From the NCBI RefSeq assembly GCF_928097925.1, contig NZ_CAKMRI010000001.1, positions 558,001-622,000 on the forward strand: DNA of 64,000 nt. Direction: 5' to 3'. Of the stretch, positions 48,391 through 54,071 are shown piece after piece; the first letter of the stretch is position 1; the number at the start of each line of letters is the position of its first letter. The notes beneath the pieces were generated by a model. It saw only the letters and a list, made by a program, of their open reading frames with translations, did no database searches and was not told the origin of the DNA. Made by a program: the position numbers and the translations under genes. Source of the DNA: Mediannikoviicoccus vaginalis. GTDB lineage: Bacteria; Bacillota; Clostridia; Tissierellales; Peptoniphilaceae.

Positions 48391-48792
48391 TTATAGTCTC
48401 ATAAACCCACAGCAATCTATTTCCGAAAGCTCACTAAATCCTACGGACTTATAAAATGCTATTGTTTTTGGATCGATGTCAGTAGTCAACTGAATCTGTC
48501 TAACATTTGGATAGGAATCTAACATAGCTTTAATAAGGGCTTTGCCGATCCCCTTCCCCTGTTCTTCGGGAAACACCAAAATATCTTGAATAAAAACAAC
48601 AGTGAATCCATCACCTACTGCACGTATTATTCCTAATAATTTATCATCTTCATATGCCGCCAGTATTTTCAAAGAATTTTCATAGCCTTTCTCTAAAGAA
48701 CCCATATCATCTGTATAAGCTGTCCAACCAACTGCATCATAAAGCTTATTTATCTCATCAAAATTAAACTTGGTATATTCTTTAATCTGCAT
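48391..48792 (-). CDS. GNAT-family N-acetyltransferase
   Basis: About 133 residues. The acetyl-CoA site is DILVFPEEQGKGIGKALI (Q/R-x2-G-x-G/A). The substrate is unknown. ATG at 48792 has GGAGG five bases upstream; the frame extends four codons further. Single gene ended by its own terminator. Confidence 0.88.
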   Translation of the reverse strand: MQIKEYTKFNFDEINKLYDAVGWTAYTDDMGSLEKGYENSLKILAAYEDDKLLGIIRAVGDGFTVVFIQDILVFPEEQGKGIGKALIKAMLDSYPNVRQIQLTTDIDPKTIAFYKSVGFSELSEIDCCGFMRL

Positions 48793-48868
48793 ACTTACCT
48801 CCATGTACTTTAATAATTTTAATTTATTACATTAATAGCAGGTTGAAGTGTATTGCCTACTATGAATA

Positions 48869-49759
48869 TCAATCCAAAATTGACAGGTATAAATCAAGTC
48901 TTTGATTTAAATACACTGCAAACATATCTGCCATTGCCGAAATATTATTCCTTACATGATATTCATCAAAAGCTTCATAATATTTCAAGCGATCTGTAAA
49001 CTTTATATCTATTGGTGGATAACCTGCTTTCATTAGCTCTAAATTAACTAATAGCCTTCCTGTTCTTCCGTTTCCATCAATAAAAGGGTGAATACTTTCA
49101 AATTCTATATGAAAACGAGCAAGTTTGGTTACAATATCTTCCCTACTATTTTCATACTGTCTCAATAACTCTTCCATTTTTGGAATAATTAAATATGGTT
49201 GAACAGGTTCATGTGCTGCCCCCATGATTCGAACAGGAATTTTTCTATATATTCCTCTATCCTCTTTCTTATCAGCTAAAACCAAATAGTGGATATCTTT
49301 TATTACCTTTTCCGATATTTGTGCGTTTTCACTAACAAGTTGTCGGACATAATCAAAGGCTTCTTTATGTCCAATGACCTCTAAATGTTCTTTTAATGAT
49401 TTTTGATCAATTGTAAGTCCTCTAAGAACCATATCCGTTTCACGCAAAGTCAATGTGTTACCTTCAATGGCATTTGAATTATATGTGTATTCGATTAGAA
49501 ACTCTTCATTTAGTCTTTCCAACTCTCCTTCGGTTAGAGGTCTTCTTTTTTTAAGAGCTTCTAATTTATCTTCTATAATTGGAATGAGTGATTTGTTATT
49601 TTGATATCTCCCATCGCTGGGCTTTACAGCATCGTTTGGTATCTTCCAAGCTCTTCCATCTCGGTATGCTCCAGGAATTTTTCCTTCTTGACATAGAGCC
49701 CTTACTCTCCTGTCGGATATATTCCATTTTTCTGCTGCTTGTTTTACAGTTATGTACAT
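48869..49759 (-). CDS. Fic-domain protein with N-terminal HTH and inhibitory motif
   Basis: The 296 residues start with a MerR/excisionase-like HTH (ITVKQAAEKWNISDRRVRAL, 1-45). Next comes a helix with the inhibitory motif SNAIEGN ([ST]-x3-E-[GN], near residue 95) and a Fic domain with the complete catalytic loop HPFIDGNGRTGR (near residue 217). Fic enzymes transfer AMP to target proteins; the inhibitory helix upstream makes this a class II, self-inhibited type. The HTH plus repeats at the promoter suggests autoregulation. Confidence 0.92.
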   Translation of the reverse strand: MYITVKQAAEKWNISDRRVRALCQEGKIPGAYRDGRAWKIPNDAVKPSDGRYQNNKSLIPIIEDKLEALKKRRPLTEGELERLNEEFLIEYTYNSNAIEGNTLTLRETDMVLRGLTIDQKSLKEHLEVIGHKEAFDYVRQLVSENAQISEKVIKDIHYLVLADKKEDRGIYRKIPVRIMGAAHEPVQPYLIIPKMEELLRQYENSREDIVTKLARFHIEFESIHPFIDGNGRTGRLLVNLELMKAGYPPIDIKFTDRLKYYEAFDEYHVRNNISAMADMFAVYLNQRLDLYLSILD

Positions 49760-49782
49760 AAATCATCCCTCCAATTTCTTTT

Positions 49783-49843
49783 ATTATACCATTTTATCGG
49801 AACAATATTAATTTATCGGAATGACATAAGTCATTTATCGGAA
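49783..49843 (-). promoter_or_regulatory. Triple direct repeat TTTATCGGAA at the fic promoter
   Basis: Identical 10-mers at 49793-49802, 49812-49821 and 49834-49843 (19 and 22 bp apart) lie upstream of the fic start. A TATAAT -10 box (minus, 49783-49788) directly follows the nearest copy. The repeats have the form of multiple protein-binding sites. Confidence 0.75.
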
Positions 49844-49871
49844 TAATACAGTTTTCCCTAAGTAATTTACA

Positions 49872-49900
49872 AATAAAAAGCACCTACCAAAGTAAGTGCT
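49872..49900 (-). terminator. Terminator of the methyltransferase gene
   Basis: The 9-bp arms AGCACCTAC (49879-49887) and GTAAGTGCT (49892-49900), with one A-C/G-T position, have a CAAA loop. A T-rich tract follows on the minus strand. Confidence 0.85.
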
Positions 49901-49921
49901 AACTCAAAAATTTTATTAACT

Positions 49922-50539
49922 TTATTTTTTCAATGTAATTAATCCTGCGCAGTCTGAAAATTTTTCAAATTTCATTTCTGGAAAATATTTCTTCATCTCA
50001 GCTGCCACAAAGTAGAATTCGTCTTCGTCCCAAGCTTCCCCTACTTCGTTTCTACATTTGTCATGGTCAAGACGGGTTTCAAAGGCTACATCGCCAATAT
50101 ATATAACTCCACCTTCATTTAATTGATTAAGCAGATCTTTTAAAAATGTAACTTTTTTATCATCGGTTAAATGATGAAGTGAATATGTGGCAATTATTGC
50201 ATCGTATTTATTTTCTAATAGTGGTTCTACCAGTCCATTAGAAATATCTCCAATAAAAAGTTTGGCATCGGGCATTTTCTCTTGTGCTATCTCGAACATT
50301 TTCTCAGAAAAGTCCTGTCCATAAATTTCACATCCATGTTCATATAGTTTTGATATCAAAGTTCCTGTACCAAAACCAATGTCTAAAGCATTTTTATGAT
50401 GCGCGTCTAATATACGATTATATATTTCATTTAGTATTATCTTATATCCTGCAAATGGATAGGAATTTTCTTCGTCAGAAATATCTACGCTTTCATCGTA
50501 ATCATCCGCCCATAAATCAAATCCTTTGTTACTTAACAT
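49922..50539 (-). CDS. Class I SAM-dependent methyltransferase
   Basis: The 205 residues contain ALDIGFGTGTLISKLY (SAM motif I, near residue 51), then an Asp-containing strand end (EIYGQDFSEKM) and YDAIIATYSLHHL (motif post-I/IV). Small-molecule methyltransferase type; substrate unknown. GGAGGG precedes the ATG. It starts 39 nt after an AbiEi-like remnant and may use that gene's promoter. Confidence 0.88.
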   Translation of the reverse strand: MLSNKGFDLWADDYDESVDISDEENSYPFAGYKIILNEIYNRILDAHHKNALDIGFGTGTLISKLYEHGCEIYGQDFSEKMFEIAQEKMPDAKLFIGDISNGLVEPLLENKYDAIIATYSLHHLTDDKKVTFLKDLLNQLNEGGVIYIGDVAFETRLDHDKCRNEVGEAWDEDEFYFVAAEMKKYFPEMKFEKFSDCAGLITLKK

Positions 50540-50577
50540 TTTCCCTCCAATTTTTATTTTTTGTCAACAATGACACA

Positions 50578-50745
50578 CTAACGATAACTTGTCATTAAAG
50601 ATAAACTGTTTGTCACCCTCTCAAGTTTGCCATTTCGAACCATATCTGTAAGATACCATGAATCTATGCTATTCTCCGCTACTTAAGATGCTGTGACTAT
50701 ACCATTATTTTTTTCTATTATCTTTTTTATTTTACTTTTATTCAT
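50578..50745 (-). pseudogene. AbiEi-type antitoxin N-terminal remnant
   Basis: ATG at 50745 with AGGAAG upstream opens a frame of 55 codons broken by TAA at codon 21 (50683-50685). The pieces KSKIKKIIEKNNGIVTAS and SWYLTDMVRNGKLERV are the winged-helix N-terminal domain seen in AbiEi/type IV antitoxin regulators. The rest of the antitoxin (normally about 200 residues) and the nucleotidyltransferase toxin are absent. So this is a decayed toxin-antitoxin locus. Confidence 0.6.
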
Positions 50746-52316: not shown

Positions 52317-54071
52317 TCACAATGCATTGTCTTTTGCTTGGGAACATAATTTTTTATCCTCGTCATTCTTGTAGGAACACAATTTATTAATGTCATTGTC
52401 TTTGGCATTTTTTCTTTTATCTTTGAAATTATTAGAATCTTGACTATCTTTAACTCCTGTTTTGAAATAGAATGTTAAGTCATAAGGATGAACTGTTCCG
52501 TCTTTATCAATTCTCCCCACTACGACTTTATCAACTATGCTTTCAAATACTGTTCTATTAAATTCCTCTATAATTTCTTTATTTTCTAATATCTTTTTAA
52601 ATTGCTTTAGTCTTTCTTTAATAGAGTCTTCATCTTTTATCGTTAGTTCCAGTGTTTTCTTTTCATCAAGTAATTCTTCTTTTTGTTTTGTCAGTTTTTT
52701 ATACTTTTTAGCATAAACTTCTTCGTCTATACTATCTTCTAAATGAAGATCAACTAACTTTCTTTCTTAACTAATGATTCTGTTTAATTGGTTTTCTAAC
52801 TTTTTCAGATCCTTGACTAAAGATTCATCATTTATTTCTTCTTCTACAATTTTTAAAAAGTCATCTATTACTGTTGAATCTGCATGGCATAATTGCCTAT
52901 AGCTTTCAACAAATGCTTTTTCTATTGCTGCTTCTTGTATTCCTTTTGAATGAGGACAATATTTTTTACCTTTTTTTGTTGATTTTACACATTGCCAGTT
53001 AATTTTTTTATAAATTGAACTAGTGTGCCATGTTCTTCTTGAAAGTATTTCACCACAAAATCCACATTCCAGCATACTTGAAAAAGCGTATTGTCTTGAT
53101 AGTTTTTCTCTTTTTCTATCCTTATTAGCAATAGTGTTTCTATTTTGTGCTCTCCTGAGTCTAATCTCCTGTGCCTTTTCAAAATCTTCTTTTGATATAA
53201 TTGGCTCGTGATGATTTTCAATGTGATATTTATCAGATTCACCAAAATTTGCTAGTCTTCTTTTTGTTATAGGATCGACTGTAAAGGTCTTTCCCATTAG
53301 TATATCACCAATATACTTTTCATTTTTAATTATTCCTAACACTGTAGTATCAGACCATTTTGTTTTACCTCTCGGGGTGAGATATCCTTGCTCTTCTAGT
53401 TCCCTGCCAATGACTGAGCCACCATTGCCCTCTAAATATCTTTTAAAGATGTATCTGACAATTTTGGCTTCTTCTTCATTTATAGAGATACTTTTTGTTG
53501 TAGGGTCATAATCGTATCCAAGACAACCTTGAAAACCAATAAGCTCCCCCTTTTCCATCTTCATTTTCAGTCCTTTTTTCACATGGGCTGAGGTATTTTC
53601 TACTTCTTGTTGAGCTACTGAACTTAATATTGTTAATAGTAACTCTCCATCCATTGTCAAAGTATCTATATTTTCTTCTTCAAATACTACACCAACATTG
53701 TTTTCCTTTAATAGTCTTACATACTTTAAGGTATCTAATGTATTTCTAGCAAATCTTGATATAGATTTAGTAATTATCATGTCTATATCTCCATTTTGGC
53801 AATCACTTATTAGCCTCATGAAATCAGCTCTTTTAGTAGCAGTTGTTCCTGTTGTTGCTTCATCTGCATATATACCAGCCAGAGTCCAGTTCTTATTATT
53901 TTTTATTAGATTTGAATAATAATCAACTTGCGATTTATATGATTCAAGTTGGTCTTTACTATCTGTACTTACTCTACAATATGCTGCAACGCGTTTTAGA
54001 TCTAAATGTAGCGCATTTCTATTTCTTGCTCCTGTATTTGAAGCTTTTATTACTTTTACTTTAGTATTCAT
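52317..54071 (-). pseudogene. Large serine recombinase interrupted by one nonsense codon
   Basis: Full frame of 584 codons before the stop with a single TAA at 52767-52769. N-terminal resolvase domain: AAYCRVSTDSKDQLESYKSQ (catalytic Ser in RVSTD) and ISRFARNTLD. Recombinase domain: YLEGNGGSVIGRELEEQGYL. Zinc ribbon: CGFCGEIL and CVKSTKKGKKYC. After the stop the same frame continues with coiled coil and C-terminal domain. The 434-residue upstream part keeps the catalytic core. Type as in TndX/TnpX-like integrases of mobile elements. Confidence 0.85.

What the first reader, a model, noticed from the sequence alone, without database searches (positions are those of the whole stretch)
48869..49843. 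Self-inhibited Fic protein with an HTH and three identical promoter repeats
TTTATCGGAA occurs three times in 51 bp directly upstream of fic, with one copy next to the -10 box. The protein has its own N-terminal HTH and both the active HPFxxGNGR loop and the inhibitory S-x3-E-G motif. The combination suggests that the Fic protein senses something by its own catalytic state and controls its promoter. A Fic switch linked to transcription is little described.
Basis: partly seen in the sequence, partly recalled or inferred. Interest (0 to 1): 0.58.

Follow-up and report, generated by a model that had tools for sequence, protein, structure and literature searches.

The report
Self-regulating Fic enzyme with operator array
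A gene for a self-inhibited protein-modifying (Fic) enzyme carries its own DNA-binding domain, and its promoter carries a matching set of repeats that has been kept across very distant bacteria and in prophages, so the enzyme most likely controls its own production.

Summary
Three exact TTTATCGGAA copies lie within 51 bp upstream of a class II Fic gene with an N-terminal HTH_17 domain; no 10-mer clusters this way elsewhere in the window or in 60 shuffles. Comparative evidence strongly supports an operator array. 86 of 88 distinct orthologues (mainly Bacillota, also Fusobacteriota, Gardnerella and others) keep it within 300 bp of the gene; matched controls gave 0 of 83, 0 of 84 and 0 of 88. The last copy sits between -35 and -10, mostly in one register. 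The site follows the HTH, not the Fic domain: HTH-less Fic relatives lack it, a sister clade with a changed recognition helix has a changed site there, and stand-alone relatives of the HTH have a third version. Exact sites outside fic promoters are at chance level, which suggests a private autoregulator. The unit from array to stop codon has moved between phyla; in 8 of 8 viral contigs with a full copy it lies between terminase and portal. Fic proteins acting on their own promoter (CccR) or switched by DNA (CbFic2) are published, so this is a new variant. Repression and sensing remain inference.

The parts
48869..49759 (-). HTH_17-Fic protein gene, 296 aa
   Evidence: ORF; Pfam HTH_17 res 2-45 (E 2.8e-8) and Fic res 148-241 (E 3.4e-21)
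49625..49756 (-). N-terminal winged HTH (residues 2-45); recognition helix near residues 16-24 with R17, R18, R20 invariant in 88 of 88
   Evidence: AF2 model; HTH-only model; structural neighbours lambda Xis and BldC
49586..49624 (-). flexible linker between HTH and Fic (residues 46-58; pLDDT under 50 at residues 50-54)
49460..49477 (-). inhibitory motif SNAIEG (residues 95-100); S or T-NAIEG in 88 of 88 orthologues
49055..49090 (-). catalytic Fic loop HPFIDGNGRTGR (residues 224-235); His in 87 of 88
49793..49802 (+). operator copy 3 (nearest the gene), in the -35/-10 spacer (reads TTCCGATAAA with the gene)
   Evidence: same register in 67 of 88 orthologues
49812..49821 (+). operator copy 2, just upstream of -35
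   Evidence: conserved column block
49834..49843 (+). operator copy 1 (outer), about 4 helical turns from copy 3
   Evidence: conserved column block
49806..49811 (-). predicted -35 box TTAATA
49783..49788 (-). predicted -10 box TATAAT, extended (TG before it), 17-bp spacer
   Evidence: spacer 17 in 76 of 88 orthologues
49879..49900 (-). terminator-like hairpin of the upstream methyltransferase gene, which sets the fic promoter apart

Best explanation
This is a one-gene, self-controlled Fic module. The N-terminal Xis/BldC-type winged HTH recognises RTTCCGATAA and binds the three copies in the fic promoter. The last copy lies between -35 and -10, so bound protein blocks RNA polymerase and the protein represses its own gene (negative feedback). 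The outer copies help binding, through Fic-Fic contacts and the flexible linker. The operator appears private: the protein regulates itself and not a regulon. Enzyme activity is held in check separately by the S-x3-E-G helix, so the module keeps a potentially toxic AMPylator low and off with no separate antitoxin. It travels between phyla as promoter plus gene, often in prophages between terminase and portal, where a role in host takeover or defence against other phages is likely. Shown here by sequence: array, register, co-variation with the HTH, privacy, mobility. Inferred: binding, repression, cooperativity, role, AMPylation.
For: Array in 86 of 88 orthologues against 0 of 83, 0 of 84 and 0 of 88 in controls. 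Conserved columns at all three sites, as strong at sites 2 and 3 as at the -10 box, although two sites lie outside the core promoter elements. TTCC begins 14 bp before -10 in 67 of 88; spacer 17 bp in 76 of 88. HTH-less Fic relatives: 0 of 17 have the site. Sister clade with S/T instead of R at position 18: TTGCCGAT present in all 17 and in the same register in 14 of 17; inverted second copy 42-45 bp upstream in 15 of 17. Stand-alone HTH relatives, mostly with Q at position 20: TTCG at 14-15 bp before -10 in 14 of 17. A Fic with a Cro-type HTH instead (L180) has a different inverted repeat there. Reverse test in the family: 10 of 12 arrays found by DNA pattern lie at HTH-Fic genes. Exact site in 23 carrier genomes or records: 33 of 43 at fic promoters; the other 10 compare with 9 for the reversed control. 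HTH-only model closest to lambda Xis (Z 6.2) and BldC (Z 6.1). CccR shows autorepression by a Fic protein.
Against: No binding or expression data exist. L094 (intact gene) has no array; L006 has one intact site and one degenerate one. Spacing is 18-24 bp, mainly 20 and 22-23, not the 9-bp steps of BldC; 20 and 23 bp differ by about 100 degrees in helical phase. In a group of close orthologues (such as L033 and L037) the middle copy is degenerate, so three copies are not essential. Direct versus inverted arrangement differs between clades. A separate host regulator binding the site is not excluded by sequence alone, and the residue-site association rests on few independent switches. The fold matches for the HTH have middling Z.
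Confidence: 0.83

Rival explanations
1. The array is a switch on enzyme activity as well as on transcription: the promoter-bound protein is paired up and inhibited or deAMPylating, while protein that leaves the array is an active AMPylase, as proposed for CbFic2 and FICD. (An extension of the best explanation, not exclusive with it.)
For: CbFic2 goes from AMPylase monomer to deAMPylase dimer on DNA binding (PMC10628234, passages). Best Foldseek matches of the whole model are FICD structures. Inhibitory Glu and active site are kept together in nearly all members and lost together in 3 loci (L192, L193, L198).
Against: CccR's regulatory and toxic activities are reported as independent. L192, L193 and L198 keep the operator although inhibitory Glu and Fic loop are altered, so operator use does not need the switch. 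Few protein molecules can be on the promoter at any time.
Confidence: 0.3
2. The HTH activates, MerR-like, rather than represses the fic promoter.
For: A site between -35 and -10 is typical of MerR-type activators (recalled), and the HTH is of the MerR/Xis/BldC fold.
Against: Spacer is the standard 17 bp in 76 of 88, not the 19-20 bp that MerR activators correct (recalled); -35 and -10 are near consensus. CccR, the closest tested case, represses.
Confidence: 0.1
3. The repeats are bound by another regulator (host or phage) and the HTH of the Fic protein serves to bring it to DNA or to its target.
For: No binding data; HTH domains joined to enzymes can serve in localisation (stated in PMC10628234, passage).
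Against: The array is kept in hosts of several phyla, a 40-kb phage and an 18-kb plasmid; the site changes with the HTH and is missing with HTH-less Fic; sites outside fic are at chance level.
Confidence: 0.06
4. The repeats are chance or a mobile-element end feature and not an operator.
For: DNA homology between distant carriers starts at the array, as a mobile unit's end would.
Against: Shuffles 0 of 60; position tied to the -10 box across diverged promoters; changed in parallel with the HTH; no such array at the other end, 0 of 83 downstream.
Confidence: 0.01

Closest known systems
CccR of Yersinia pseudotuberculosis (PMC9755527)
   Same: Class II Fic protein with S-x3-E-G and an HTH in one chain; site near -35/-10 of its own promoter; represses itself (passages read)
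   Different: HTH is C-terminal; site is an inverted repeat of 10 bp separated by 26 bp; it is a T6SS effector. Here the HTH is N-terminal HTH_17 and the sites are direct repeats (inverted pairs in sister clades).
CbFic2 of Coxiella burnetii (PMC10628234)
   Same: Class II Fic enzyme with an HTH, DNA binding linked to dimer formation and activity (passages read)
   Different: C-terminal DeoR-type HTH plus DUF4172; high affinity for nonspecific DNA; histone target in the host.
BldC (PMC5859096) and lambda Xis
   Same: Xis/BldC-type winged HTH by fold; direct repeats (BldC passages)
   Different: Stand-alone small proteins; each BldC protomer takes a 9-bp repeat head-to-tail and here spacing is 18-24 bp; here the HTH is tethered to an enzyme.
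SoFic and PADLOC candidate PDC-S04
   Same: Fic domain matches PDC-S04 (3.6e-40) and SoFic (6.1e-29); SoFic is described as an anti-phage abortive-infection AMPylator (PMC12249575, start of abstract in a listing)
   Different: No protection shown here; the N-terminal HTH_17 lies outside those models' match.
Phd-Doc type II toxin-antitoxin
   Same: Fic-fold toxin with autoregulated promoter (recalled)
   Different: Doc has a separate antitoxin gene that binds DNA (recalled); here inhibition motif and DNA-binding domain are in one chain and no partner gene recurs at most of the 88 loci.

Membership tests
Class II Fic (fido) proteins | Fic loop HxFx(D/E)GNGRxxR | tested here: met
   HPFIDGNGRTGR, His in 87 of 88 orthologues; Pfam Fic 3.4e-21
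Class II Fic (fido) proteins | inhibitory (S/T)xxxE(G/N) N-terminal to the Fic loop in the same chain | tested here: met
   SNAIEG at 95-100; S/T-NAIEG in 88 of 88
Class II Fic (fido) proteins | Fic fold | tested here: met
   AF2 pLDDT 89.7; Foldseek FICD E 5e-15, 3cuc, CdFic 4x2d
Class II Fic (fido) proteins | AMP transfer activity | not testable with these tools
   needs purified protein
CccR-type autoregulating Fic | Fic and DNA-binding domain in one chain with repeats near -35/-10 of its own promoter | tested here: met
CccR-type autoregulating Fic | C-terminal HTH and inverted repeat with 26-bp gap | tested here: not met
   HTH N-terminal; direct repeats with 19 and 22 bp spacing
CccR-type autoregulating Fic | binding and repression of own promoter | not testable with these tools
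   needs EMSA and a reporter
BldC/Xis winged-HTH family | Xis/BldC-type winged HTH fold | tested here: met
   HTH-only model: 1rh6 Z 6.2, 6ama Z 6.1 (middling Z, rows within 1 are tied); TIGR01764 excise 34.4 bits, above its cut-off of 28.8
BldC/Xis winged-HTH family | binding to direct repeats in adjoining 9-bp steps (BldC) | tested here: not met
   spacing mainly 18-24 bp against 9 bp in BldC
Type II toxin-antitoxin (Phd-Doc) | separate antitoxin gene in an operon | tested here: not met
   no partner family recurs at most of the 88 loci; the commonest neighbours are phage terminase and portal; only ORFs of 70 aa or more were clustered, so a very small partner could be missed
Prophage moron | own promoter, inserted among phage structural genes | tested here: inconclusive
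   met in relatives: Javan422 and 8 of 8 viral contigs; in the window copy itself no phage structural neighbour was seen
SoFic / PDC-S04 phage defence | match to the defence models | tested here: met
SoFic / PDC-S04 phage defence | protection from phage | not testable with these tools
   needs plaque assays

The most novel reading that the evidence does not exclude
The promoter array is the sensor of the enzyme: protein parked on its own operators is held as an inhibited or deAMPylating pair, and a change in operator number or occupancy (for example prophage replication multiplying the sites, or phage attack on the DNA removing them) frees single molecules that AMPylate a host target. A single gene would then be toxin, antitoxin, repressor and detector, spread by prophages across phyla.
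Probability: 0.1. Interest if true: 0.85.

Novelty: new variant of a known kind. Interest (0 to 1): 0.55.

Why it matters
It turns one odd repeat into a testable rule for a whole group of bacterial Fic enzymes: an HTH joined to a Fic enzyme predicts an operator word at a fixed place in its own promoter, and when the HTH changes, the operator changes. It extends self-control by Fic proteins from the published C-terminal-HTH case to a mobile N-terminal-HTH family found in several phyla, phages and a plasmid. It also offers a simple system in which to ask whether DNA binding sets the catalytic state of a Fic enzyme. Stand-alone relatives of the same HTH lie beside restriction-modification and other defence-like genes with a site in the same register, so the rule may reach beyond Fic.

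Tried and rejected
Rejected: chance repeats (controls). Global regulator: exact sites outside fic are at the level of the reversed control, and a looser pattern in the own genome gave 8 matches against 17 for the reversed control. Two-gene toxin-antitoxin: no recurring partner gene. RNA element: no Rfam match in 48700-50600.

Led nowhere: a sequence search of the HTH alone against solved structures gave nothing up to E = 1, so the fold route was used. A phylum-wide pattern search (398 genomes) gave 12 matches in 10 genomes, two of the matches being the window's own array; the ones outside lie at no HTH-Fic gene and the reversed control had similar numbers. That sample held few carriers of this clade, so it is weak as a test. 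The first count of arrays with 150 bp upstream gave 84 of 88; looking further upstream raised it to 86 because L061 and L065 carry extra DNA between array and gene. An inverted-repeat search for L180 first missed the promoter and was repeated at the right place. Paper searches found no report of this N-terminal HTH_17 Fic group with its operator; the library lacks most subscription journals, so absence is not proof. The association of residues 18 and 20 with site type was not tested on a tree and rests on few switches.

Rows dropped: 4 duplicate loci of 92 (L086, L102, L104, L109) before all counts of 88. The tandem upstream copy in L066 is not among the 17 of clade 2; it has no clean site, so 17 of 18 with it. 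L019 has only about 50 bp of upstream DNA among the 17 HTH-less relatives. L025/L128 is a broken HTH-Fic gene and was counted in no group. The family search covered 121 genomes, own included; one search covered 130.

Full report
What is there. The ORF at 48869-49759 on the - strand encodes 296 aa with Pfam HTH_17 at residues 2-45 and a Fic domain at 148-241. Three exact copies of TTTATCGGAA (TTCCGATAAA read with the gene) lie at 49793, 49812 and 49834. A sigma-70-type promoter, TTAATA-17-TATAAT with an extended -10, is predicted at 49811-49783, so the copy nearest the gene lies inside its spacer; a terminator-like hairpin of the upstream gene lies just beyond the array (the scan finds no more promoter-like sites than shuffles do, so the promoter rests on the comparison below). 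No other 10-mer in the window has three copies within 60 bp, and none of 60 shuffles had one.

Is the array conserved? A scan of genome contigs returned 80 orthologues with 70-91% identity, and a search of 121 family and order genomes gave 12 loci with the full protein, the window's own included. After removal of 4 duplicates, 88 loci remained. Of these, 86 have two or more YRTTCCG words on the gene's strand at array spacing within 300 bp upstream. The same test gave 0 of 83 downstream of the gene, 0 of 84 at 400-700 bp upstream and 0 of 88 on the opposite strand. Named hosts include Streptococcus, Lactococcus, Eggerthia, Fusobacterium, Leptotrichia, Veillonella and Gardnerella, and a Mycoplasmopsis outside the 88. 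A profile anchored on the -10 box shows the consensus TTCCG..AA, then TATTATTCCGATA, then TTGATATTATTCCGATAA-GTGGTATAAT; sites 2 and 3 carry as much information as the -10 box, and the outer site less. TTCC of the last copy begins exactly 14 bp before the -10 box in 67 of 88, with a 17-bp spacer in 76 of 88. Spacing peaks at 20 and 22-23 bp, so the outer copies are about 42-43 bp apart. The exceptions are L094 (no array) and L006 (one intact, one degenerate site).

Does the site belong to the HTH? Four results say so. First, Fic relatives without this HTH: none of 17 has the site in 200 bp upstream. Second, a sister HTH-Fic clade (about 35% identical to the window protein) has S or T instead of R at position 18 of the recognition helix. 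It carries TTGCCGAT instead of TTCCGAT; the site is present in all 17 promoters, in the same register in 14 of 17, with an inverted second copy 42-45 bp upstream in 15 of 17. Of 13 further diverged members that keep R18, 8 have TTCC at the same 14-bp register and 5 have an inverted copy 41 bp upstream. Third, 17 stand-alone or nearly stand-alone relatives of the HTH, mostly with Q at position 20, have TTCG at 14-15 bp before the -10 box in 14 of 17. Fourth, Fic proteins close to the sister clade but with a Cro/C1-type HTH (L180, L182) do not show the site, and L180 has an 18-nt inverted repeat there instead. These switches are few in number and were not counted on a tree.

Is it a regulon? The exact site ATTRTTCCGATAA was counted in 23 carrier genomes or records (one phage record is also contained in its host). 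Of 43 places, 33 lie in fic promoters by comparison of coordinates; the other 10 compare with 9 for the reversed control. In the family (130 genomes), 10 of 12 places found by a two-site pattern lie directly upstream of an HTH-Fic gene. The operator is therefore mostly private to the gene.

How it moves. In the 14 nearest loci from other genomes (L033-L046), DNA homology with the window begins at -96 to -88 and ends at +880 to +897, that is, from the array to the stop codon, with unrelated flanks. In Streptococcus phage Javan422 the gene lies between terminase large subunit and portal. All 8 viral contigs with a full copy have terminase upstream and portal downstream; among the 88 genome loci 14 have terminase sequence upstream and 10 have portal downstream (only 70 of 88 loci have 1 kb on both sides). 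A Leptotrichia shahii plasmid carries it beside toxin-antitoxin genes. The window copy lies among ordinary accessory genes with no phage structural neighbour seen.

Protein. AF2 gives pLDDT 89.7 with a weak linker around residues 46-58. Foldseek places the whole model nearest to FICD, a Bacteroides Fic and CdFic. The HTH alone is nearest to lambda Xis (Z 6.2) and BldC (Z 6.1, 5.9); these Z values are middling and rows within 1 are tied. R17, R18, R20 and the motif S/T-NAIEG are invariant in 88 of 88, and the catalytic His is kept in 87 of 88. In three loci of one genus (L192, L193, L198) the inhibitory Glu and the Fic loop are both altered while the promoter sites remain.

Mechanism. Binding by the HTH to its own promoter, with repression, is the best reading (0.83). 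Shown by sequence: conservation, register, co-variation, privacy, mobility. Inferred: binding itself, repression by occlusion, help from Fic-Fic contacts across about four helical turns, and low-level upkeep of an auto-inhibited AMPylator. Coupling of DNA binding to catalytic state is open. CbFic2 argues for it. CccR and the loci with altered active sites argue that promoter control can stand alone.

Known or new. CccR is the closest tested case of a Fic protein that represses itself; CbFic2 is the closest case of DNA-switched activity; BldC and Xis are the closest HTH folds. The HTH position, the site arrangement and the prophage-borne family differ. The searches found no account of this group. 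PADLOC matches the Fic domain to PDC-S04 and SoFic, which makes phage defence a fair guess and not a result.

Noticed in passing
L113, L114, L119, L120, L122, L131: Small stand-alone HTH_17 proteins related to this HTH lie next to defence-like genes (LmuA-like, type I and C5 methyltransferases, PLD-like), and 14 of 17 promoters of such genes carry TTCG in the -35/-10 spacer. They look like a family of autoregulating controllers of defence operons; others lie beside response regulators or unknown genes. L131 is a fusion of such an HTH to a C5 methyltransferase.
   Followed up: partly
L192, L193, L198: HTH-Fic proteins of one genus that lost the inhibitory Glu and changed DGNGR to NGNSR together, yet keep the promoter sites: possibly a Fic protein turned pure regulator.
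   Followed up: no
L066, -1794..-874 relative to its fic: Two HTH-Fic genes of different clades lie in tandem in one genome.
   Followed up: no
L061 and L065, upstream of fic: A GC-rich stretch ending in a new TATAAT has come between the array promoter and the gene.
   Followed up: no
L154 (G025:C1:587644-587674): A two-site array like the fic operator with no HTH-Fic gene beside it, perhaps a relic.
   Followed up: no
window 52767-54071 (-): Large serine recombinase (CcrB/XisF-like, below those models' cut-offs) about 3 kb from fic; an integrated element or remnant may lie here.
   Followed up: no
L025/L128 (G026:C35): A broken HTH-Fic gene with many stops and degenerate promoter sites.
   Followed up: no
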